Assembly (NCBI GenBank): GCA_947378965.1
Contig: CANCMG010000036.1
Span: 1 to 39,589 of the forward strand
From: Alcaligenaceae bacterium
GTDB lineage: Bacteria > Pseudomonadota > Gammaproteobacteria > Burkholderiales > Burkholderiaceae_B
Direction of reading: 5' to 3'
Length of the DNA stretch: 39,589 nt
Shown: piece by piece, positions 12,747 through 38,903 of the stretch
Layout of the letters: each line of letters starts with the position of its first letter
Position numbering within the stretch: position 1 is the stretch's first letter
Made by a program: the position numbers and the translations under genes
The notes under the pieces: model-generated
The model's database searches: none
Seen by the model: only the letters and a program-made list of their open reading frames with translations
What the model was told of the DNA's origin: nothing

Positions 12747-15700
12747 TTAGTCCCAGTGCCAGCCCACCTCGTCGCGTAACCATTTTGTATAGCGCGGCAT
12801 GTCAACCCACCCAACAGCGTCGGGAGCCTGCGGCAAGAGCGGCGGCGTGCGAGCCAGCAACGACTCTACCTGGCGGCGTACCTCAGCACCCATTGCTGGG
12901 GCGTGATCCTGATAAGTCACCCAAAGACGGCCATCGGGCTGGTTCACTCGGCGATCCCCGCGCTGCATAGTTCGGGTAAATACCGCCCGCTCGTCATGAA
13001 CAATCGGTCGGGTCACTGAAGCTGCTTTGGGCCCTGCACCAAGCGGCACGCCCGCCGCCTTCGCCTGCCAATGCATCCAAGCCAAGGCGACCTGAGACAA
13101 GTTCCCCGGGGTCGAGCCTGGCGACGCCTCTCGTGTCAAGTAGCCGCCGCCAATATCGGCATGCGCCCCAACAAAGGCGCGTTCGACAACATTACCGCCC
13201 ACCTGCGTACCGCGCGCCGAGGTCAACGGAAACAACCACCGATGCTCATGCAAGGCCACAGCATGCGCCACCCACTTCCAGGCCGGAGCAATGGTCAAAT
13301 CAAACGCAGCGTTACCCGCACCGAGCACATTAAACTGCGCCACCGTATCAAACAGACCCATGAAGCGCAGGTCAACACAACTCGACAACGTTCCGCGCTG
13401 CGGGTGTTGTAACCAAAAGCGGCCATCACGCAGGTGCTGAGCCACCCGATTTCCAAAGTGGCGAGCAAGCGCTGCCCCGCGCGAGAACCCCACCACATCC
13501 AAAGCAAGCGCCGGCGCACCCTCTCTTTGCAACGCAACAGCATTGAGCCAGCGCTCCCACTGCTGATCCACCCGATTTCCGCCAGACCACGCCACTGCCG
13601 CATCCAAGGCCTGCCTGGCACTGCCCGTTTCAAGATCGCCCGCTGGGCCTTCGATATATTTCACCGCCCCACCCTGATACTGCCTTGCAAACAGCCAGAC
13701 ATTGGTCTGTGAAGTTGGACTGTTACCCGTTCCGTCAAACGCAAACAACAACAGCCCCAGCGGGTCAGCATAACGTCGTGGCTGTTGGTCTGCATACCCA
13801 TACTGACTGTTCCCCGGAACTGGGCCCAGTGGATCAGGTTCAAGATAGTGTCCCCAGCGAGGATCGTAAGTGCGTTGATAGTTGTCATGCCAGCCTGTGA
13901 ACCGGTCTGCCACTTGCCCCGGCAAGCGCAACGGTTGCACAAAATCTTTTCCCAAGTCGTGTTGCTGTAGCAGCAACTCACCAAGAGGGCTATAGGTAGC
14001 CTGCCAACGAATCGCCTGCCGGGCGTCGGTAAGAAACTGGGGCAGCCCCATCGCGTCGGTATGAAAAAAATAAAGATTTGCCTGTGTCGCGTCGTTGCCG
14101 TATTCAATCAAGCCGATCGGCACCTGCTGCAAGTAGATAAAGCGTCGCTTCACAACCAAGCCACGCTTGCTGTCGTAGGCTTGTGCCACCATCTTTTGCT
14201 GATCAAACAAAAACTGCGTACGCCCATGCTGATCTTCACGCCAGATTTGTTCGCCCAGCGCGTTGTGACCATAGCTGACCGCTTGACCCGCATCGCGCTG
14301 TTCGACCACACTCGTCAGTCGACGCTGTGCGTTGTAGCGCACCACAAAACCGTCAACACGTATCGGCAGCCCGGTTGCGTCACGCGCGATCGCATGACGT
14401 GCTGCCCCTGACAAACGCCATCCGTACTCGCGCGTCGACGTCTGGTTCTCAGCCGACCCCCAACTACGGTGTCGACTCAAGCGTTGCTCAACGTCATAGT
14501 CATAGCGCGTGTCCTGCGTTTGCCCGAGCAGCGTCGTGCGCTCGTGACTGAGCTTTGCGCGCGAATCGGTAACGACTTGATACCGATACAGGGGCAAGCG
14601 CGTTGCGGGTTGATACACCAGCAGCTGCTCAAGCCGTGGCGCCTGACCCTCGAGTGCCTGAGACACGACCATTTGCCTGACGGTTAACAGACCGTTGCCA
14701 TGCACAAGCCCATTTGGGCCGATCTGTACAACCTTCTGCCGACGCCCAGCGGCGTCTTCCCACTCAACCGCTTGCAAGCTTGTGTGCGACCAGCGATAGT
14801 GCAACACACCCCCTTCTGGCAATACGTGCGTTAAGCGTCGGCCCTGTGCATCATGGGTAAACGTCTCGCGATAACTCCACTCGGGGCGAAACACCTTAAA
14901 CAGGCCCGTACCCGCCGTGCGCCGAAACACCACTCGCTCACGTAAATCGCCCGCTGAATTAAAACGCCAATGTTGTGTCTCTTCAGGGTGTGCAATCGCA
15001 GCGGGGTGCAGCCCTCGCCAGGCCACGCGCATATCAATCGGCGTTGCAAAGGTTGAGCGTGCCTGTAAACGTCGGACTCTTCCAAACGAATCAAAATCCC
15101 AACGCCAAAGATCTTGCTCGCCAAAATGCCGAGCGACTAAACGCGAAACCGGCGGCGAATGTTCGCTCTGCGAAACGAATTGGTTTCGCTCGAATGCTCT
15201 CGACAACTTGTGTTGTGTCTGATATTCAAAACGCTCAGCTGCAACACCACGACTGTGCCATTGCGTTAAGTGTCCGGTCGTATCAAACCATAAGCGCAAT
15301 CCAGGCCAGCCCTTGCCATGAAAAGAAACCTGCCGGATGACATGCTCAACATCTTGTTCAATCGTAAGCCCGAGCGCCGCATCCGGCAATCCTGTTGGCA
15401 ACCCGACACCGAGTGACGTTGGTACATCCGGGGTAAAGGTCTGCACCCGACCCGCTCGATCATACTGCCAGGTATGCGTTCGAAGCACCTGCATCGTGGA
15501 GTGATTCACAAGTGAGATGCCCGTCACGGCATGCGTATGGCCAGCCTGTAAAACCTCTTCATGATGATAACGACGACCCATCCCATCAGGACGAATCACC
15601 TCGACTAGCCCGCTTGCCTCATACACATAGCGAAAAACCCCAAGCGGCGATGCAACGGCAACGAGCGTACCCCGTGCTTCGGACGTTGTCTTTTGTGACA

Positions 15701-16451
15701 ATACGAGTCTTTGTTTTGTACTTGGTTGCGCGTTCGTTGTTTGTGCTGTCAACGACACAGGTTGCTGCAGGGGCGCCGAAGCATAGATGAAATGCAAACT
15801 CTGGTTGGTGCGAATATCTGTCACTCGGTCAAGCTCACCATGCCATCTCGACGGCGCCTGATGCCGCACAATCTGCACCGCAAGCGCCGCACGACATTTA
15901 CCCTGTAATTGACCGCGTTGATTCGGCTCTACAAACGACCAGCCAATCAAGCGGCCGGGTTCGTCAAAGCGCAAGCACTTTCCAAATGGCCACTGCCACT
16001 GCCAGTTTTGACCCGTGCGCGTAATCACACCATCCTCAGGCGCTCGCCCAACACAACGCTGCGTTTGATCGCATTGAAAGGTCAACCGACTACCATCCGC
16101 CTGAAGCACTTGCAGGTGCGCGCCCATCCAATATATTCGCGTGTCATACGACCACGACCAACCTCGGCCCAACGCACCCTCTCGAGGATCCATCGCGTTG
16201 TAGTGCCTAACCAGCTCCAGGCCGGTTGCACTAACTAAACTAGGCAAGTCCGTATCGCGTTGATATTTGTTGCCATTACGTCGATCGACTGGGTTGCCAA
16301 TCCCATGATTAGGGCTGCTGCGCGCACGACCTAACGTTGCAACACCGCCCTGCTGACATGGGTTACCCAACTCTGTCACTTGGCATGACGCGCCCGCTGC
16401 CCAGACGAGTTTCGATAAAAAGAGCAATGCTCCGATCAACCAAAATCGCAT
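12747..16451 (-). CDS. Exported RHS-repeat protein with C-terminal DUF2235 lipase-like domain
   Basis: This 1234-aa protein carries a Sec-type signal peptide (residues 1 to about 20, ending VWAAGAS), then a DUF6531-like start (GNPVDRRNGNKYQRDTDLP), many YD/RHS-type repeats, and an RHS core (LYFFHTDAMGLPQFLTDA to YDPRWGHYLEPDPLG). The core ends in a perfect PxxxxDPxGL motif at residues 891-900, the known self-cleavage site of RHS proteins. Residues 901-1234 form a DUF2235 alpha/beta-hydrolase domain: FAFDGTGN, nucleophile elbow GFSRG (Ser990) and GAHADIGGGY (His1097, Asp1099). DUF2235 domains occur in Tle1-type phospholipase effectors. The likely role is an encapsulated, exported lipase toxin or self-processing enzyme. 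No VgrG, PAAR, adaptor or immunity gene is adjacent. Confidence 0.88.
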   Translation of the reverse strand: MRFWLIGALLFLSKLVWAAGASCQVTELGNPCQQGGVATLGRARSSPNHGIGNPVDRRNGNKYQRDTDLPSLVSATGLELVRHYNAMDPREGALGRGWSWSYDTRIYWMGAHLQVLQADGSRLTFQCDQTQRCVGRAPEDGVITRTGQNWQWQWPFGKCLRFDEPGRLIGWSFVEPNQRGQLQGKCRAALAVQIVRHQAPSRWHGELDRVTDIRTNQSLHFIYASAPLQQPVSLTAQTTNAQPSTKQRLVLSQKTTSEARGTLVAVASPLGVFRYVYEASGLVEVIRPDGMGRRYHHEEVLQAGHTHAVTGISLVNHSTMQVLRTHTWQYDRAGRVQTFTPDVPTSLGVGLPTGLPDAALGLTIEQDVEHVIRQVSFHGKGWPGLRLWFDTTGHLTQWHSRGVAAERFEYQTQHKLSRAFERNQFVSQSEHSPPVSRLVARHFGEQDLWRWDFDSFGRVRRLQARSTFATPIDMRVAWRGLHPAAIAHPEETQHWRFNSAGDLRERVVFRRTAGTGLFKVFRPEWSYRETFTHDAQGRRLTHVLPEGGVLHYRWSHTSLQAVEWEDAAGRRQKVVQIGPNGLVHGNGLLTVRQMVVSQALEGQAPRLEQLLVYQPATRLPLYRYQVVTDSRAKLSHERTTLLGQTQDTRYDYDVEQRLSRHRSWGSAENQTSTREYGWRLSGAARHAIARDATGLPIRVDGFVVRYNAQRRLTSVVEQRDAGQAVSYGHNALGEQIWREDQHGRTQFLFDQQKMVAQAYDSKRGLVVKRRFIYLQQVPIGLIEYGNDATQANLYFFHTDAMGLPQFLTDARQAIRWQATYSPLGELLLQQHDLGKDFVQPLRLPGQVADRFTGWHDNYQRTYDPRWGHYLEPDPLGPVPGNSQYGYADQQPRRYADPLGLLLFAFDGTGNSPTSQTNVWLFARQYQGGAVKYIEGPAGDLETGSARQALDAAVAWSGGNRVDQQWERWLNAVALQREGAPALALDVVGFSRGAALARHFGNRVAQHLRDGRFWLQHPQRGTLSSCVDLRFMGLFDTVAQFNVLGAGNAAFDLTIAPAWKWVAHAVALHEHRWLFPLTSARGTQVGGNVVERAFVGAHADIGGGYLTREASPGSTPGNLSQVALAWMHWQAKAAGVPLGAGPKAASVTRPIVHDERAVFTRTMQRGDRRVNQPDGRLWVTYQDHAPAMGAEVRRQVESLLARTPPLLPQAPDAVGWVDMPRYTKWLRDEVGWHWD

Positions 16452-22868: not shown

Positions 22869-24347
22869 TTATCCCTTTAAAGTTTGTTCAAGCACATGCA
22901 GCGTATGGTTAAAGTCTGCTTGTTTCGCACGCAAATCGGTGATCTTTCTCACCGCATGTAACACCGTGGTGTGGTCGCGACCACCAAACAGATCGCCAAT
23001 TTCTGGCAAGCTCTTTTGCGTCAGTTCTTTAGCTAGGTACATCGCAACCTGACGCGGCATCGCAATGTTGGCAGGTCGCCGCTTTGAATACATATCGGCA
23101 ACCTTCATTTTGTAATAATCTGCGACGGTTTTTTGAATGTTCTCAACCGTCACCTGCCCGCTAGACGCCGATAGCAAATCTTTTAACGCGTCTTTGCAGA
23201 TATCAACGTTGGCGACTTCACGACCATGAAAGCGCGCATACGCCACAACTTTTTTTAGCGCGCCCTCAAGCTCTCTTACGTTACTACGCAAATGTTTGGC
23301 AATAAAAAACGCAACATCTTCGGGTAGCGTCACACCCTCTTGCTCGGCCTTGCGCAACAAAATTGCAACCCGCATCTCGAGTTCGGGAGGCTCAATCGCA
23401 ACGGTGAGCCCTGAATCAAACCTCGAGATCAGGCGTGTATCAATTCCGGCGAGCTCTTTGGGATAGGTATCGCTCGTGATGATGATTTGCTTGCGCTGTG
23501 CGACCATCGCCTCAAATGCATAGAAGAACTCTTCTTGTGTTCGGTTCTTACCAGAAAAAAACTGAATATCATCGATCAAGAGCAAATCGAGTGAATGGTA
23601 GTAGCGTTTGAAATCATCAAACGCTTTGCGTTGATATGCTTTCACTACGTCTGACACATACTGGTCTGCATGAACATATCTCACACGCGCACCTTTGCCC
23701 GCCGCGAGCAACGCATTACCAATCGCATGAATCAAATGCGTTTTACCTAAGCCAACCCCGCCGTACAAAAACAACGGGTTGTACGAGGTACCGGGATTTT
23801 CGGCAACCTGTAAGGCGGCAGCCCGAGCGAGTTGATTGGCCTTGCCTGTTACAAAATTATCAAAGGTCAGTTCGATATTGAGGCGTGAGCGCTCGTCGGC
23901 CATTGACGTAACAGACAGCGCCGCCGAAACAGCACTTAAAGATCCTGCCTGCACCGCAGATTGGCCTGCTTGTGTCACCAGCGCGGCTGGTGGATTGTCA
24001 TTCTGACTAGACAGCGGCGAGTGCGTTGCGGGCTCACTTTGACTTGGGGCAACTTCATCATGTGTGTTTGTGTTTGCGCGGTGCACCCGCAGAGGTTGTG
24101 CTGGTGCGGGTAACTCGAACAATACTTGTACCGGTCGTTTGTACCAAGTTGATGCAAAGGTTTCAATTTGATGCGCAAAGTTTTTACGCACCCAGTCCAG
24201 CTTGAAGCGATTTGGCGCGGACAGCCGTAAACACGCCTGCGCTTCATCGAAGGCAAGCGGAATCAGCGGACGTATCCACGCGCTGATTTGCTGGGGAGGA
24301 AACTCCTGCTCTAGGTGCAAGACGCAGGACTGCCAAAACTGGTTCAT
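22869..24347 (-). CDS. dnaA: Chromosomal replication initiator protein DnaA
   Basis: DnaA binds DnaA boxes at oriC, melts DNA and recruits the helicase. The 492 aa show domain I (residues 1 to about 85, [20 protein letters not shown]), a variable Ser/Gln-rich domain II, the AAA+ domain III with Walker [11 protein letters not shown] near residue 197 and Walker [11 protein letters not shown] near 253, and domain IV with [15 protein letters not shown] near 453. The start is ATG at 24347. Upstream, a TAGAAT -10 and a perfect DnaA box at the -35 position suggest autoregulation. It is the first gene of the dnaA-dnaN-gyrB operon. Confidence 0.98.
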
Positions 24348-29317: not shown

Positions 29318-29399
29318 AACAATCCTTTATTCAAAGCAAAAAATCAGGATTCGTGTTGTTTAAACACATCAATCGATAATTAGTTACAAAAATTTTGGC

Positions 29400-29408
29400 T
29401 GTGGATAA
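29400..29408 (-). promoter_or_regulatory. DnaA box (perfect)
   Basis: TGTGGATAA, the reverse complement of TTATCCACA, lies in the AT-rich spacer after the SDR gene start. Confidence 0.7.
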
Positions 29409-29514
29409 CAAGGGCTAAGTGCCTGTGAACAAACTGTGCACGAACAACGAATAACTTGTTGGATTTAATCATGGACAAAAGTTATTCAACTTGCTCCACA
29501 AAAGCAAACAGAGG

Positions 29515-29523
29515 TTATGCACA
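29515..29523 (+). promoter_or_regulatory. DnaA box (TTATGCACA)
   Basis: It fits the relaxed consensus TTWTNCACA and lies between the two perfect boxes of this spacer. Confidence 0.6.
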
Positions 29524-29577
29524 AGTAAAAAGTTACGTAACTATTTGAAATTAAATAAAAAATTATAGTTATACCGT

Positions 29578-29586
29578 TTATCCACA
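29578..29586 (+). promoter_or_regulatory. DnaA box (perfect)
   Basis: TTATCCACA follows AGTTATACCGT and an AT-only run, the arrangement expected near an unwinding element. Confidence 0.7.
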
Positions 29587-29708
29587 GCCCTTATTATCCA
29601 TTAGTTTTTATATATAAAACAAAAGATATAGATACAACAGCAAGACTGCAACGCGATCGAATCAAAGATTTTAGAAAAAAAATTTTTCAGTATTTTCTCG
29701 TGGTTAAA

Positions 29709-30878
29709 TCAAACCTTCGCTAAACGTTCAATCGCCAAATCAAGGGTCGCAATCTGTTTGGCAAAACAAAAGCGGATGAGTTTGTGATTCGATGCGGGGG
29801 CTTCGGATGACTGATAAAAGGCTGAAACCGGAATAACAGTGACGCCATGGGTCTGAGTCAGCCAGATAGCAAAATCAGCTTCTGCTTGATCTGAAATGTC
29901 GCTGTAATCAGCAAGTAAAAAAAACGTACCTGGGCTTGGCAAAGCTTTGAAACGTGTTTGTTGTAGTCCTGCGGTGAGGTAGTCGCGCTTGGCCTGATAA
30001 AAGTCAGGCAAATTCAGATAAGTGCTTGAATCGCCGGTATAGGCTGCCAAGGCGTGTTGAAAAGGCGACGGTACCGTAAAAACCATAAATTGGTGAACTT
30101 TTCGTAGTTCGGTGGTCATGGATTTTGGTGCGCAACAGTAGCCAATCTTCCAACCCGTTGTATGGGTAGTTTTGCCAAACGAAGAGATCACGAAGCTTCT
30201 TGCTGCTAGCGCAGGTCGTGTTGATAGGCTGACGTGTTTAACACCATCAAAAATGATGTGTTCGTAGACTTCGTCTGATAGCAAAAGGAGGCCATGTTGT
30301 TCGACTAAGGCCTCGAGTTGATCAAGATCAGCAGCTGTTATCACAGCCCCGGTTGGATTATGTGGAAAGTTGACAATCAGTAATTTTGTTTTTTGGGTAA
30401 TGGCAGCAGTGACCAGGCTCCAGTCAACGCTATATACGGGATTGGTCGGGCTTGGGGCTCGCATTGGAACGCTAATCGGTGTGGCGCCCGCGAGTTTGAT
30501 GGCGGGAATGTAACAGTCGTAGCATGGCTCTAGAACGATGACTTCGTCGCCTGCTCCGACGCAAGCCAGCACACTTGCCATGATGGCTTGTGTGGCGCCG
30601 CTAGTAATCGTGATTTCTGTATCTGGATCATAGCGATGTTGATACAGGTCATTTATTTTTTGACTAATGATGTCGCGCAATTGAATGACGCCGGCCATTG
30701 CAGGATATTGATTGAAACCGCTCGCCATAGCTTCAGATACTAAGCCCAGCAATTTTGGATCAGTGTTGAAGTCAGGAAAGCCCTGCCCCAAGTTGATTGC
30801 GCGATACTCGAGCGCCATCTTGCTCATGGTAGTGAAGATGGTGGCGCCAATTTCGGGCAATTTCGAGTTTATATGCAT
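29709..30878 (-). CDS. Class I/II aminotransferase, probably methionine aminotransferase type
   Basis: This 389-aa fold-type I PLP enzyme resembles YbdL, a methionine-preferring aminotransferase. The N-terminus INLGQGFPDF is the subgroup signature. NFPHNPTG (residues 170-177) contacts PLP, SDEVYEHIIFD includes cofactor-binding Asp and Tyr, and SSFGKTTHTTGWKIGY holds the PLP Lys at 236. The C-terminal LIRFCFAK supplies the carboxylate-binding Arg. Kynurenine or aspartate specificity cannot be excluded. The gene is minus strand between two AT-rich spacers that carry DnaA boxes, so it splits the candidate origin. Confidence 0.87.
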   Translation of the reverse strand: MHINSKLPEIGATIFTTMSKMALEYRAINLGQGFPDFNTDPKLLGLVSEAMASGFNQYPAMAGVIQLRDIISQKINDLYQHRYDPDTEITITSGATQAIMASVLACVGAGDEVIVLEPCYDCYIPAIKLAGATPISVPMRAPSPTNPVYSVDWSLVTAAITQKTKLLIVNFPHNPTGAVITAADLDQLEALVEQHGLLLLSDEVYEHIIFDGVKHVSLSTRPALAARSFVISSFGKTTHTTGWKIGYCCAPKSMTTELRKVHQFMVFTVPSPFQHALAAYTGDSSTYLNLPDFYQAKRDYLTAGLQQTRFKALPSPGTFFLLADYSDISDQAEADFAIWLTQTHGVTVIPVSAFYQSSEAPASNHKLIRFCFAKQIATLDLAIERLAKV

Positions 30879-31127
30879 GATTGCTGGTCAGATGTCGTTG
30901 GGGAGCAGGTGAAACAGATATTTAAAGCCGTAATGAAGGTATTAGGTCTAAACGAGCGAAGGTCAAGATATCGCGGTGATAAGTCTGCTATCAACAGGAT
31001 ATCCACCAGTTGTACACACAATATTAACAAGTTACTCACAGAGTTATGAACAAGACTACGATTTAATAACGATGGAATGAACAACTTGTCCCTAGCTATA
31101 CAGAGATATTCAAAAGTTATACCGTAG

Positions 31128-31136
31128 TTATGCACA
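31128..31136 (+). promoter_or_regulatory. DnaA box (TTATGCACA) in module A
   Basis: It fits TTWTNCACA, follows GTTATACCGTAG, and lies 16 bp before parS 1. Confidence 0.6.
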
Positions 31137-31152
31137 GAGTTATGAAGTGCAC

Positions 31153-31168
31153 TGTTTCACGTGAAACA
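31153..31168. promoter_or_regulatory. parS: parS site 1
   Basis: TGTTTCACGTGAAACA is an exact match to the bacterial chromosomal parS palindrome bound by ParB. parB itself is encoded 4 kb away. Confidence 0.96.
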
Positions 31169-31308
31169 ATGAGTGATGCTTTTCATTAAATGTAGACGGA
31201 TCGCCTTGTTTTTTATTGTGATCGTTAATGCACAGCACGATTAATAGAAAATTTGATTAAATATGATGAAAAAATACTTTCCCTTATTTATACAAAGATA
31301 TTCATAAG

Positions 31309-31329
31309 TTATACACAAGGTTATACACA
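31309..31329 (+). promoter_or_regulatory. Pair of DnaA boxes (TTATACACA x2) in module B
   Basis: TTATACACA occurs at 31309-31317 and 31321-31329 in the same orientation with a 12-bp period, close to one helical turn. The second lies 15 bp before parS 2. Confidence 0.65.
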
Positions 31330-31344
31330 AAGTTGCGAGTTCAT

Positions 31345-31360
31345 TGTTTCACGTGAAACA
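31345..31360. promoter_or_regulatory. parS: parS site 2
   Basis: An exact TGTTTCACGTGAAACA, 192 bp after site 1, at the end of repeated module B. Confidence 0.96.
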
Positions 31361-31486
31361 GTGGCTCATATTTTAAGTAACTGTGATGGTGGATCGTCAT
31401 TTTGTTCTGTCAGATTATTAACTGTAGCAACGCCGCTTTAATGTGAAACAAGGCCGCTTTTAGCGGACGCGACAATAGCTAGGTTT

Positions 31487-31732
31487 TTATAACCAGCTGT
31501 TGTGTGCATAAAGTCGAAGCCCCTCGGTTACCACTCGCTGACGCGGGGTATTTGTTAGACATAGCCTCATTATCTTCGGCTGCCATTCTCCTCCCCGCAC
31601 TAAAGCAGCATAGACAATTGAAACGATGACCTGGTCGCTTTTGGGAGAATTGATAATGTTGGCAGTAAAATTTGCCCAAAAATATGATTCAGTTTTGATT
31701 TGTTGTTGTACACCGGCCTTTTGATCAATGTT
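31487..31732 (-). pseudogene. Unrecognised open frame without start codon, possible gene remnant
   Basis: On the minus strand an 82-codon frame runs from just after an in-frame TGA inside parS 3 to a TAA at 31487-31489. It contains protein-like segments such as VSIVYAALVRGGEWQPK and VVTEGLRLYAHNSWL, but has no ATG, GTG or TTG near its upstream end. I do not recognise the family. It may be a decayed gene 3' end or chance; it explains why this part is less AT-rich than its surroundings. Confidence 0.25.
31503..31511 (-). promoter_or_regulatory. DnaA box (TGTGCATAA, reverse)
   Basis: This is the reverse complement of TTATGCACA. It is isolated from the others and lies in the less AT-rich part of the spacer. 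Confidence 0.45.
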
Positions 31733-31744
31733 TCACGTGAAACA
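31729..31744. promoter_or_regulatory. parS: parS site 3
   Basis: An exact TGTTTCACGTGAAACA, 62 bp before the mnmG ATG and just upstream of its likely promoter. ParB bound here could affect mnmG-rsmG-parA-parB transcription. Confidence 0.96.
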
Positions 31745-31769
31745 ATCCGTCAACTTAAAGCGACAAGTC

Positions 31770-31775
31770 TATAAT
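31770..31775 (+). promoter_or_regulatory. Likely -10 element of the mnmG promoter
   Basis: A perfect TATAAT lies 31 bp before the mnmG ATG. The -35 position (about 31747-31752) has no good match and borders parS 3, so an activator-dependent or ParB-influenced promoter is possible. Confidence 0.45.
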
Positions 31776-31806
31776 CCATCCCCCAAGTCTATTAAATGTA
31801 CGAACG

Positions 31807-33711
31807 ATGAATCACCCTACCGTTTTTGATGTTCTCGTAGTTGGCGGCGGCCACGCTGGAACTGAGGCTGCGCTTGCTTCAGCAAGAAGTGGCGCAAAGA
31901 CGCTTTTGCTCACACATAATATCGAAACACTTGGGCAAATGTCGTGCAACCCTTCTATTGGAGGAATTGGTAAAGGCCATTTAGTTAAAGAAATTGATGC
32001 CCTTGGCGGGGCAATGGCGATCGCCACGGATGAGGCTGGGATTCAATTTCGAATATTGAATGCCTCAAAAGGCCCAGCAGTTCGCGCAACACGTGCTCAG
32101 GCTGATCGGGTGTTATATCGACAAGCCATTCGGACGCGGCTCGAAAATCAACCGAATCTTTGGTTATTTCAACAATCAGTCGACGACCTAATTCTTGAAG
32201 GCGATCGTGTGGTTGCTGCAGTAACCCAATCAGGAATCACTTTTCAAACAAAGGCCCTGGTACTTACTGCAGGGACCTTCCTGAATGGATTAATTCATAT
32301 TGGATTACAAAACTATTCTGCTGGTCGCGCTGGCGATCCATCAGCCTCCTCGTTAGGAGCCCGGTTACGAGAGTTAAAACTTCCGCAAGGCCGTCTAAAA
32401 ACAGGGACACCACCTCGCATTGACGGACGAACAATTAACTATTCGTTGACCACTGAGCAGCCAGGTGATCTAGATCCTGTTCCGGTCTTTTCATACTTAG
32501 GTAGCCAAGCACTTCACCCAAAGCAAGTGCCTTGCTGGGTCACTCATACCAATGCCCTGACACACGAAATCATCCGAGGTGGACTTGATCGCTCTCCGAT
32601 GTATAGCGGAGTCATTGAAGGGGTTGGCCCTCGATATTGCCCATCAATTGAAGATAAGGTTCATCGGTTTGCAGATAAAGACTCGCATCAGATTTTCCTC
32701 GAACCAGAGGGTCTGACAACACACGAAATCTATCCAAATGGGGTATCAACGAGCTTGCCTTTTGATATTCAATTGGCGTTGATACGCTCGATGAAGGGTC
32801 TTGAAAACGCCCACATTGTCCGCCCTGGGTACGCGATTGAATATGACTACTTTGACCCCAGAGAATTAAAAGCGACGCTTGAAACCAAGAGTATCCAAGG
32901 TCTGTTTTTTGCTGGACAAATTAACGGAACAACGGGTTATGAAGAGGCAGCGGCTCAAGGATTGATTGCTGGTATTAATGCCGCCCGTGCGGCTAAAAAC
33001 GAGAGCCCTTTTATTTTGCGCCGTGATCAAGCGTACATGGGTGTGTTGATCGATGACCTTATTACCAAAGGCGTCACAGAACCCTATCGCATGTTCACGT
33101 CACGCGCTGAATATCGCTTAAGTTTGCGAGAAGATAATGCCGATTGGCGCTTGACTGAAAAAGGTCGAGAGTTTGGTCTGGTTGATGATCAACGTTGGAA
33201 CGCCTTTACAAAAAAGAGAGAAACAGTTGAAAACGAGGTTGCTCGGTTGCGTGCGACATGGGTAAATCCTCGCATGCTAGACCCTGTAGTGGCCGCAAAC
33301 ACGCTTGGAAAAGAGATCGAACGCGAGTACTTACTATCAGATTTATTGAAGCGCCCTAACGTTTCTTACCAAAGCCTCGTCAACATGCCCTTGCAACAAG
33401 GTTTCGACTTACCTGCAGGACTATTGCCTGGGGATGAGGCTGAGCAGGTGCAAATCCAAATTAAGTATGAAGGCTATATTGCGCGTCAGCAAGAAGAAGT
33501 CGACCGACATCAGGCACAAGATACGCTCGAAATACCACCAGATCTTGACTTTGGTGTAGTCACAAGCTTGTCGATCGAAGTCCGCCAAAAACTGAATATC
33601 CACCGACCAGAAACCATTGGCCAAGCTTCCCGAATTTCTGGCATCACGCCCGCCGCCATCTCGTTACTCTTGATTCATCTCAAGCGCCATCAATATGGCA
33701 AAGCTGCGTAA
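31807..33711 (+). CDS. mnmG: tRNA uridine-5-carboxymethylaminomethyl modification enzyme MnmG
   Basis: MnmG (GidA) is the FAD- and NADH-using partner of MnmE in U34 modification of tRNAs. The 634 aa include the FAD motif [12 protein letters not shown] (GGGHAG at residues 13-18), the signature [36 protein letters not shown], a conserved Cys in YCPSIEDK, and [16 protein letters not shown]. The C-terminal helical domain that contacts MnmE and tRNA ends [10 protein letters not shown]. It directly follows the oriC/parS region and overlaps the annotated rsmG start by 17 bp. Confidence 0.98.
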
Positions 33712-35285: not shown

Positions 35286-36194
35286 ATGGTAACGAAGAAA
35301 CCTAAAGGCTTAGGTCGCGGCCTCGACGCATTACTTGGAGCCGACACACACACGCTAGATCAAGTCGGGCAGCCTACAACGCTTGCAAACGCACCAAGCA
35401 CCTTGCGAATAGCCCAGTTGCAAGCGGGCAAATATCAGCCGCGAACACGTATGGACGAGGGCGCACTGGCCGAGCTTGCAGACTCAATCCGCGCCCAAGG
35501 AATCATGCAGCCGATCTTGGTTCGGCCGCTTGATGCCCTCAAAGGCCAATACGAAATCATCGCAGGCGAACGGCGCTTTCGCGCCGCACAATTAGCAGGT
35601 CTTACAGAAGTGCCTGTGCTTGTTAAAGATGTTGCAGACGAACACGCTGCAGCGATGGCGCTGATTGAAAATATTCAACGTGAAGACTTAAACCCTCTAG
35701 AAGAGGCTCAAGGTGTTAAACGACTCATTGAAGAGTTTGGCTTGACTCATGAACTTGCCGCAACAGCCATTGGGCGCTCGCGCTCAGCGACCAGTAACCT
35801 GTTGAGGTTGCTCAACCTTGCGGCGCCGGTACAAACGATGTTGTTGGCCGGCGATATCGACATGGGTCATGCTCGCGCACTGCTTGCCGTCGACGCGGCA
35901 ATACAAATCCAACTCGCGAATCAAATCATCGCAAAACGCTTGTCTGTGCGCGACGCTGAGGCCTTGGTCACACGCTCAATTAAAGAACCCGTTGCGAAAG
36001 CAACTGGCAAGCAAAACAGCCAGTCACGCGATGTCACGCGCCTTGAAGACACGCTCTCTGACCAACTCGGCACAAAAGTATCACTTAAGCTTGCCAGCAA
36101 GGGTCGAGGGCAATTGATCATTGATTTTCATGGCTGGGAGCATTGCTCTTCGCTGATCGAAAAACTTAACCTCAAAGAAGACATAGACGCTTGA
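35286..36194 (+). CDS. parB: Chromosome-partitioning protein ParB
   Basis: ParB binds parS, spreads as a CTP-dependent clamp, and works with ParA. The 302 aa begin KKPKGLGRGLDALLG, the ParA-stimulating tail. The N-terminal domain has GERRFRAAQLAGL (near residue 95) and ALIENIQREDLNPLEEA, the nucleotide-binding boxes. The HTH reads LTHELAATAIGRSRSATSNLLRLL (about residues 155-178), and the C-terminal dimer domain ends in IEKLNLKEDI. It follows parA by 50 bp with AAGGAAA before the ATG. Confidence 0.97.
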   Translation: MVTKKPKGLGRGLDALLGADTHTLDQVGQPTTLANAPSTLRIAQLQAGKYQPRTRMDEGALAELADSIRAQGIMQPILVRPLDALKGQYEIIAGERRFRAAQLAGLTEVPVLVKDVADEHAAAMALIENIQREDLNPLEEAQGVKRLIEEFGLTHELAATAIGRSRSATSNLLRLLNLAAPVQTMLLAGDIDMGHARALLAVDAAIQIQLANQIIAKRLSVRDAEALVTRSIKEPVAKATGKQNSQSRDVTRLEDTLSDQLGTKVSLKLASKGRGQLIIDFHGWEHCSSLIEKLNLKEDIDA

Positions 36195-37871: not shown

Positions 37872-37895
37872 CTTTTAAAAAACCACGAGGTGTTT

Positions 37896-38903
37896 ATGCG
37901 TCGCACTCATTATGTTGGTCTCGCCCCAAAGCGCCTGCTGGTAGGCGTGCTCGCGGCGCTATGCTTAAATACTGTAGTGGCGCAGCCACTTCTCCCTCTG
38001 GCGGATTTTCCAAAACAGCCTTTCACAATCATTTCGCCATTTCCGCCAGGCGGCGGTAACGATAGTCTCGCGCGCATCCTTGCAGCAGAGTTAGCGCCCA
38101 TTGTTGGGCAACCGGTGGTTGTCGAAAATAAAGCGGGCGCGGGGGGCAATTTAGGCACCGCGTACGCGGCTCGTGCCAAAGCCGATGGCTACACGTTGTT
38201 GATGTCTCAGACCAGCATCATTGCGGTCAATCCTGTCATGTATCAGAATGCAGGCTTTGTGCCAGAGGTAGATTTTGAACCCCTCACACAGCTGACAAAT
38301 GCGTCTGTCGTCTTCGTGGTGCGTGAACAAAGTCCTTACAAGACGCTGGCGCACTACATCACCGACGCAAAAGCTCGGCCGCAAGCCGTTAATTTTGCAA
38401 CACCTGGCAATGGCACGCTTTCTCATCTTACGACCGAACGCCTCGCCAAACAGACCAGCATTCAAGTGACACATATCCCCTACCGCGGCGCAGGCCCGGC
38501 CACTACCGACTTGTTGGGCGGCCAGGTTGACCTGCTGGTCACCTCGCCCTCGTCGGTTGAAAGCCTTGTCTCGGCGGGTAAGTTAAGGGTACTTGCGGCC
38601 ACCAATTCTGACTTAATCGGCGTATTTGCAGGCACCCCGACCCTAGAAAGCCAAGGAATCACGGGCATGCAAGTGGCCGACTGGTATGGGCTATTTGTGC
38701 AAAAAGCCACGCCAACAGACCGCGTTGAGTACCTGTTGAAGGCTGTTCAGCAGGCCATGAACACAAAAACAGCGGTCGCAAAAGTCAATCAGGGCGGATC
38801 TCAGGTAGTCGCGAGCGACCGAAAAGACTTCAGCCAAAAAGTGACAAAAGAGATCGCCGAGTGGGCTGGAGTAGTCAAGGCAGCAGGTGTCAAAGCTGAA
38901 TAA
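37896..38903 (+). CDS. Bug-family tricarboxylate-type solute-binding protein
   Basis: This second Bug (TctC-like) periplasmic binding protein has 335 aa. I start it at ATG 37896 because ACGAGG lies 5 bp upstream; a GTG at 37890 overlaps that site. A signal peptide with core LLVGVLAALCLNTVVA is followed by FPKQPFTIISPFPPGGGNDSLARILA and ENKAGAGGNLGTAYAAR, both Bug hallmarks. Later segments HIPYRGAGPATTDLLGGQVDLLV match the family. No transporter gene is adjacent. It is 18-24 bp downstream of the rhodanese gene, so probably in the same transcript. Its ligand cannot be told from sequence. Confidence 0.92.
   Translation: MRRTHYVGLAPKRLLVGVLAALCLNTVVAQPLLPLADFPKQPFTIISPFPPGGGNDSLARILAAELAPIVGQPVVVENKAGAGGNLGTAYAARAKADGYTLLMSQTSIIAVNPVMYQNAGFVPEVDFEPLTQLTNASVVFVVREQSPYKTLAHYITDAKARPQAVNFATPGNGTLSHLTTERLAKQTSIQVTHIPYRGAGPATTDLLGGQVDLLVTSPSSVESLVSAGKLRVLAATNSDLIGVFAGTPTLESQGITGMQVADWYGLFVQKATPTDRVEYLLKAVQQAMNTKTAVAKVNQGGSQVVASDRKDFSQKVTKEIAEWAGVVKAAGVKAE

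What the first reader, a model, noticed from the sequence alone, without database searches (positions are those of the whole stretch)
31096..31363. Duplicated 76-bp module that fuses DnaA-box sequence to a parS site
Two equal-length units, 192 bp apart, each hold a TATACARAGATATTC start, one or two TTATNCACA boxes and a perfect parS at the same offset. About three quarters of the bases agree by eye, and the similarity extends about 15 bp further upstream. Initiator and centromere sites usually occupy separate blocks; a repeated composite suggests the spacing between DnaA and ParB sites is under selection, or a recent duplication of an origin element. Direct coupling of initiation and segregation is the speculative part.
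Basis: partly seen in the sequence, partly recalled or inferred. Interest (0 to 1): 0.72.

Follow-up and report, generated by a model that had tools for sequence, protein, structure and literature searches.

The report
DnaA-box arrays fused to chromosome centromere
Near the replication origin of this betaproteobacterium, the DNA sites that mark the chromosome for segregation sit directly behind rows of evenly spaced sites for the replication starter DnaA, a pairing kept in most close relatives, which suggests that starting DNA copying and moving the copies apart may be wired together here.

Summary
In detail: two 76-bp units, 192 bp apart, each with a perfect parS and TTATNCACA boxes, agreeing at 52 of 76 bases ungapped. 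The shared "start" is itself degenerate DnaA boxes; each unit is a row of co-oriented boxes about 11 bp apart ending at parS, preceded by a six-box row at 30988-31052. The origin core is elsewhere: a conserved AT-rich oriC at 29318-29708, across one aminotransferase gene. In 35 genomes with parS upstream of mnmG, near-exact boxes within 110 bp upstream of the distal parS number 81 pointing to it and 2 pointing away; downstream 16 and 1. Exact composites occur in 16 of 32 genus and 47 of 268 family genomes, but 1 of 399 of the order, the window itself. Last-box-to-parS distance is 24-26 bp in the seven closest genomes, 9-66 bp genus-wide: adjacency and orientation are conserved, exact spacing only locally. 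The window's duplication is not recent. Best reading: a second DnaA platform of a split origin with the centromere embedded in it. DnaA binding and coupling are inferred. New variant of a known kind (Caulobacter DnaA at parS).

The parts
29318..29708 (.). oriC core: DnaA boxes at 29400(-), 29424(-, 1 mismatch), 29515(+), 29578(+), followed at about 29590-29620 by CTTATTATCCATTAGTTTTTATATATAAAA, a probable unwinding element
   Evidence: 19-row alignment with conserved boxes and TTATATAT; GC 0.304 against 0.521 for the window; function inferred
29709..30878 (-). methionine aminotransferase-like gene that separates the oriC core from the array/parS region
   Evidence: NCBIfam NF006569, 565 bits
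30988..31052 (+). upstream DnaA-box row: six co-oriented degenerate boxes at 30988, 30999, 31010, 31021, 31032, 31044 (11-12 bp apart)
   Evidence: 7-8 of 9 positions each
31096..31171 (+). composite unit 1: boxes at 31096, 31106, 31117, 31128 (exact), 31140, then parS
   Evidence: boxes at 31117 and 31140 match only 6 of 9
31153..31168 (.). perfect parS in unit 1
31288..31363 (+). composite unit 2: boxes at 31288, 31298, 31309 (exact), 31321 (exact), then parS
   Evidence: the only exact tandem box pair in the genome
31345..31360 (.). perfect parS in unit 2
31729..31744 (.). mnmG-proximal perfect parS without a box row
   Evidence: a parS 77-83 bp before mnmG recurs in many genus members
31807..33711 (+). 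mnmG (gidA)
   Evidence: TIGR00136, 891 bits
33695..34438 (+). rsmG (gidB), overlaps mnmG
   Evidence: TIGR00138
34402..35235 (+). parA-like ATPase gene, overlaps rsmG
   Evidence: best NCBIfam match ParA_partition, 106 bits, below its cut-off of 180
35286..36194 (+). parB
   Evidence: TIGR00180 parB_part, 191 bits, above cut-off
22869..24347 (-). dnaA, with the canonical GGRDHTT motif in the DNA-binding domain
   Evidence: Pfam Bac_DnaA and Bac_DnaA_C, translation

Best explanation
The region 30980-31363 is a second DnaA assembly platform of the chromosomal origin, split from the oriC core by one gene, and the centromere is embedded in it. Rows of co-oriented, helically phased, mostly weak DnaA boxes, each anchored by one or two strong boxes, end 9-66 bp before a parS. 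Shown: the sequence architecture, its conservation, orientation and position beside oriC and upstream of mnmG-rsmG-parA-parB. Inferred: DnaA-ATP polymerises along the rows towards parS, where ParB loads; the two assemblies touch or compete, so that initiator activity and centromere activity (ParB loading, or ParA-DnaA contact) are coupled. The direction of control is open; I think it likelier that rising DnaA-ATP licenses or releases the centromere, as reviewed for Caulobacter, than that ParB gates initiation.
For: Sequence: exact boxes, 0.44 expected per strand over 35 regions, number 49 co-oriented and 1 opposed, present in 30 of 35 genomes. Near-exact boxes within 110 bp: 81 upstream towards parS, 2 upstream away, 16 and 1 downstream. 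Spacings peak at 10-12 bp and its multiples. The exact box-parS composite occurs in 16 of 32 genus and 47 of 268 family genomes, 14 of 43 genera, 0 matches for the reversed-pattern control; with the box turned round it occurs in 1 of 32 genus genomes. 12 of 12 family loci fetched have mnmG just downstream. Exact tandem box pairs in 32 genus genomes occur 5 times, in 4 genomes, all upstream of mnmG (the reversed control matched once). The array copies amplify together with parS: three tandem copies in G010, two on one contig of G019. The oriC core with an AT-rich element lies on the other side of a gene, as in split origins (PMC4285127, passages). DnaA carries the usual box-reading motif.
Against: No binding, footprint or genetic data. 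Spacing to parS is not fixed genus-wide. The mnmG-proximal parS has a near box in only 12 of 28 genus genomes. G035 has boxes near mnmG but no parS there; its one pattern match lies inside mnmG, so boxes can stand without parS. Genera such as g4 and g6 have parS and no exact composite, so the pairing is dispensable in the family. Three of 35 genomes, including G017 of the same genus, lack near boxes. In Bacillus subtilis, ParA control of DnaA does not need parS near oriC (PMC7614844, abstract). The 35 genomes are related, so counts are not independent events.
Confidence: 0.5

Rival explanations
1. The rows are an operator: DnaA and ParB jointly control transcription of mnmG-rsmG-parA-parB (and perhaps of the divergent aminotransferase gene), without a direct role in origin or centromere mechanics.
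For: The region lies between two divergent genes and directly upstream of overlapping mnmG, rsmG and parA genes followed by parB. In Vibrio cholerae chromosome II, RctB and ParB2 act on parAB2 transcription at rctA/parS2 (PMC6399470, passages).
Against: The rows lie 114-679 bp from the mnmG start codon in 27 genus genomes, and go with the distal parS rather than the mnmG-proximal one (26 against 12 of 28); this test is partly built in, as boxes were sought within 70 bp of parS. The promoter scan found 2 sites where 3.2 are expected, so it says nothing.
Confidence: 0.22
2. The rows are ordinary extra DnaA boxes of a long or split oriC; parS lies next to them only because both gather at the origin, with no working link.
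For: The rows resemble origin arrays and lie 1.3-1.8 kb from the oriC core; split origins up to about 2 kb with a spacer gene are known (PMC4285127, passages). G035 keeps boxes there without parS.
Against: Near boxes pile up on one side of parS and in one orientation (81, 2, 16, 1), and units duplicate as box row plus parS. Adjacency is kept where a further ORF of 346-387 aa lies between (7 of 20 genus loci).
Confidence: 0.18
3. A DnaA titration or reactivation site (datA- or DARS-like) that happens to lie near parS.
For: Many weak and some strong boxes in clusters; copy number varies between sister species.
Against: Such sites (recalled from E. coli) lie away from the origin and need not point one way or end at parS; here rows sit 1.3-1.8 kb from oriC and end at parS.
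Confidence: 0.06
4. A decaying relic or a chance likeness of AT-rich DNA.
For: Many boxes are degenerate and the region is AT-rich (GC 0.353).
Against: Shuffles that keep dinucleotides give 0.44 exact boxes per strand against 49; Markov copies give no row above 3; strand bias cannot come from AT content.
Confidence: 0.04

Closest known systems
DnaA at the Caulobacter crescentus centromere (Mera et al. 2014, seen only through the reviews PMC6399470 and PMC4468827, passages)
   Same: DnaA-binding sequence lies within the parS region close to the origin; the initiator is thought to act at the centromere.
   Different: There parS is about 8 kb from Cori and binding is proven. Here parS lies 1.6-1.8 kb from the oriC core, boxes form phased rows of 4-6 that end at parS and amplify with it, and binding is not tested.
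Vibrio cholerae chromosome II rctA/parS2 (PMC6399470, passages)
   Same: Initiator sites and a parS locus interlaced beside the origin and upstream of par genes.
   Different: The initiator there is RctB with its own sites and ParB2 counteracts inhibition; here the sites are DnaA boxes of a DnaA-type chromosome.
Bipartite chromosomal origins (B. subtilis, Helicobacter pylori; PMC4285127, passages)
   Same: Two clusters of DnaA boxes separated by a gene, one with the AT-rich element; boxes of a cluster share one orientation.
   Different: The spacer gene is an aminotransferase, not dnaA, and the second cluster carries the centromere.
Ordinary chromosomal parS clusters near mnmG/parAB in Burkholderiales
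   Same: parS within 400 bp of mnmG in 62 of 96 other loci examined.
   Different: Only 3 of those 62 (two Advenella, one Pusillimonas) have an exact box within 110 bp upstream of parS, 4 with one mismatch.

Membership tests
Chromosomal ParABS centromere | 16-bp parS palindrome near the origin | tested here: met
   Three perfect sites, parS upstream of mnmG in 28 of 32 genus genomes; in the other 4 the mnmG start or its upstream DNA is not assembled or not found
Chromosomal ParABS centromere | parA and parB genes nearby | tested here: met
   (the ParA-like match is below its family cut-off)
Chromosomal ParABS centromere | ParB binds and loads at these sites | not testable with these tools
   needs ChIP or in vitro loading
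Bipartite oriC | two DnaA-box clusters separated by a gene | tested here: met
Bipartite oriC | AT-rich unwinding element beside one cluster | tested here: met
   conserved TTATATAT motif and GC 0.304 by sequence only
Bipartite oriC | both clusters needed for initiation and brought together by DnaA | not testable with these tools
   needs minichromosome tests or electron microscopy
Bipartite oriC | replication starts here (GC-skew turn) | tested here: inconclusive
   cumulative skew falls to -2.50 by 29 kb and rises at 30-31 kb, but reaches -2.51 again at 38-39 kb; whole genome not available as a file
Caulobacter-type DnaA-bound centromere | DnaA box within the parS region | tested here: met
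Caulobacter-type DnaA-bound centromere | DnaA binding at parS is needed for segregation | not testable with these tools
   needs mutants and imaging
V. cholerae rctA/parS2 | RctB initiator and its 12-mer and 39-mer sites | not tested
   no search for rctB was made; the sites found are DnaA boxes

The most novel reading that the evidence does not exclude
A true origin-centromere composite: the second half of a split oriC and the centromere are one element, in which a DnaA filament grows along phased boxes into the ParB loading site, and which evolves by tandem gain and loss of whole row-plus-parS units.
Probability: 0.33. Interest if true: 0.82.

Novelty: new variant of a known kind. Interest (0 to 1): 0.62.

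Why it matters
How bacteria tie the start of replication to the start of segregation is an open question; physical initiator-centromere contact is well argued for Caulobacter and for one Vibrio chromosome. Here a natural series of related genomes carries one, two or three row-plus-parS units, different spacings, or none, next to a clearly separable oriC core. That makes the coupling idea directly testable by footprinting and by moving the rows away from parS. It would also add a Betaproteobacterial split origin.

Tried and rejected
Fixed box-to-parS spacing across the genus: rejected (9-66 bp). Recent duplication in the window: rejected. parS 3 lying exactly 2 x 192 bp from parS 2 as a sign of a three-unit lattice: not pursued; the mnmG-proximal parS keeps its distance to mnmG in many relatives while the others move, so coincidence is likelier. 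The region as oriC core: rejected in favour of 29318-29708. The promoter scan was uninformative. DNA search for mnmG in plasmids found nothing. Naming the genus failed: the one scan of named genomes returned a capped list in which a single locus, a MAG contig of an uncultured beta proteobacterium (L055), has the same upstream pattern of parS and boxes as G017 of the window's genus. That the family is the Alcaligenaceae is my inference from the shared oriC core of named Advenella and Pusillimonas contigs.

Rows dropped or limited: G035 was left out of the 35-genome counts (no parS upstream of mnmG); G020 (53 bp upstream), G009 (mnmG start missing), G027 and G029 (no mnmG match) could not enter. 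G019, G011 and G001 have short upstream stretches (608, 528, 275 bp). One search read ten minus-strand loci the wrong way round and also two family loci; one search mended this. The regions and the 110- and 70-bp limits were chosen after seeing the sequences. The reversed-pattern control matched once (G010) and once on each strand in G005 and G016. In the phylum sample two more genomes (G924, G992) have the composite, with no mnmG in the 3 kb fetched.

Papers: Mera 2014 and Livny 2007 are not held. Searches for earlier reports of DnaA boxes beside parS in Betaproteobacteria or near mnmG gave listings in which I saw none; the library is open-access papers only.

Full report
What is there. The window carries dnaA, dnaN and gyrB on the minus strand, an rnpA-yidD-yidC-mnmE block on the plus strand, an SDR gene (minus), an intergenic stretch, a methionine aminotransferase-like gene (minus, 29709-30878), the region of the finding, and then mnmG, rsmG, a parA-like gene and parB on the plus strand. 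Identity is 52 of 76 ungapped and 75% with gaps. The exact boxes sit 25 bp (unit 1) and 36 and 24 bp (unit 2) before parS, so only parS and the unit start are in register.

Anatomy. Scoring every position against TTATNCACA shows that the units are rows of boxes: 31096, 31106, 31117, 31128, 31140 in unit 1 and 31288, 31298, 31309, 31321 in unit 2, all in one orientation and 10-12 bp apart, most of them degenerate. Six more lie at 30988-31052, 11-12 bp apart. In 500 first-order Markov copies of 30879-31806 the longest row was 3, in 15 copies. The exact tandem pair at 31309-31329 is the only one in the genome.

The origin core is next door. The intergenic stretch 29318-29708 holds two opposed and two co-oriented boxes and the motif CTTATTATCCATTAG...TTATATATAAA. 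Nineteen sequences, 16 from the genus and three named (two Advenella, one Pusillimonas), align there with conserved boxes and TTATATAT; single rows deviate (L154 lacks the last box, L140 has a changed first box). First opposed box to last co-oriented box is 178 bp in many rows, 154 in some and 180 in Advenella alkanexedens and Pusillimonas. So the finding's region is a second cluster of DnaA boxes on the far side of one gene. In 7 of 20 genus loci a further plus-strand ORF of 346-387 aa lies between that ORF and mnmG, and the boxes stay beside parS and mnmG. The GC-skew turn agrees only weakly.

Conservation. Upstream of mnmG in 35 genomes (28 of the genus, four other family members, three named), exact boxes number 49 co-oriented with mnmG and 1 opposed, where shuffles give 0.44 per strand; with one mismatch 138 and 7, where shuffles give 10.9. 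Thirty of 35 have at least one exact co-oriented box. Within 110 bp of the most distal parS, near-exact boxes number 81 upstream pointing to parS, 2 upstream pointing away, 16 downstream co-oriented, 1 downstream opposed; 32, 2, 10 and 1 genomes of 35 hold them. Box-to-box distances peak at 11 bp in the ten nearest genomes and at 12 bp in the others, with repeats near 22 and 33 bp. The exact composite TTATNCACA-N5-35-parS occurs in 16 of 32 genus genomes and 47 of 268 family genomes, 14 of 43 genera; in the 12 loci fetched of these, mnmG starts just downstream on the same strand. With the box turned round it occurs in 1 of 32 genus genomes. In an even draw of 399 genomes of the order, 13 of them of the family, only the window matches; in 398 of the phylum, the window and two others, not beside mnmG in the fetched 3 kb. 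Among 96 other mnmG loci, 62 have parS within 400 bp, but 3 have an exact box within 110 bp upstream of it, all Advenella or Pusillimonas. The trait is thus a lineage feature, not general, and many family genera lack the exact form.

Is the spacing under selection? In 10 units of the seven closest genomes the last box begins 24-26 bp before parS, although the spacer sequences agree at only 38% between genomes. Beyond them the distance ranges from 9 to 66 bp in 27 genomes (limit of the search 70 bp). So orientation and adjacency are conserved, exact spacing only within the nearest clade, where common descent is an alternative to selection.

Duplication. The window's units are as unlike each other (75%) as they are unlike units of sister species (up to 78-79%), so their duplication is old or has drifted. 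G010 holds three tandem units of 148 bp period, 84-93% alike. G019 shows two units on one contig end and one more row with a broken parS on another contig, the contig ends sharing an exact stretch of 137 bp. Row and parS therefore tend to be copied together.

Mechanism. I take the rows as a DnaA platform because the motif, the shared orientation and the helical phasing are those of origin arrays, and because the encoded DnaA has the usual GGRDHTT motif. Reviews describe weak boxes arrayed behind strong anchor boxes that fill with DnaA-ATP (PMC6399470, PMC4285127; passages), and split origins with two box clusters, one with the unwinding element, around a spacer gene. In Caulobacter DnaA is reported to bind at parS and to allow segregation before replication (PMC6399470, PMC4468827; passages). 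I therefore propose a split origin with the centromere in its second half. What is shown is sequence and conservation; binding, filament growth and the coupling are inferred. Against a strict need for proximity stands the B. subtilis work in which ParA control of DnaA did not need parS near oriC (PMC7614844, abstract), and inside the family the genera without the composite. The main rival is joint DnaA-ParB control of the mnmG-rsmG-parA-parB genes, for which V. cholerae rctA/parS2 is a precedent.

Standing. Known in kind, new in form: DnaA sites at a centromere have been reported, but phased rows that end at parS and multiply with it, next to a separable oriC core, did not appear in the listings of my searches.

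Noticed in passing
12747-16451 (-): 1234-aa RHS-repeat protein with an N-terminal DUF6531 and a C-terminal Tle1-like phospholipase domain, the look of a type VI secretion effector.
   Followed up: no
31437-31451: TTTAATGTGAAACAA, a half-degenerate parS-like sequence 90 bp after the second parS copy.
   Followed up: no
37890-38903 (+): 337-aa ORF downstream of parB and a rhodanese-like gene without an NCBIfam match at E 0.001.
   Followed up: no
L156 (G019 contig C167, 21392-21719) and L006: Two contigs of G019 end inside the repeated row-plus-parS region and share an exact 137-bp stretch; the assembly probably broke at the tandem repeats.
   Followed up: partly
L157 (G003 contig C260, 6739): A TGTTCCACGTGGAACA site away from the mnmG contig, the only such genus match outside the mnmG region besides the second G019 contig.
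   Followed up: no
L172 and L173 (G924, G992): Two genomes of the window's class but another order have an exact box-parS composite with no mnmG in the 3 kb fetched; independent origin not examined.
   Followed up: partly
L038 (G035): Family member with boxes 130 and 260 bp before mnmG but no parS there; its one pattern match lies inside mnmG.
   Followed up: partly
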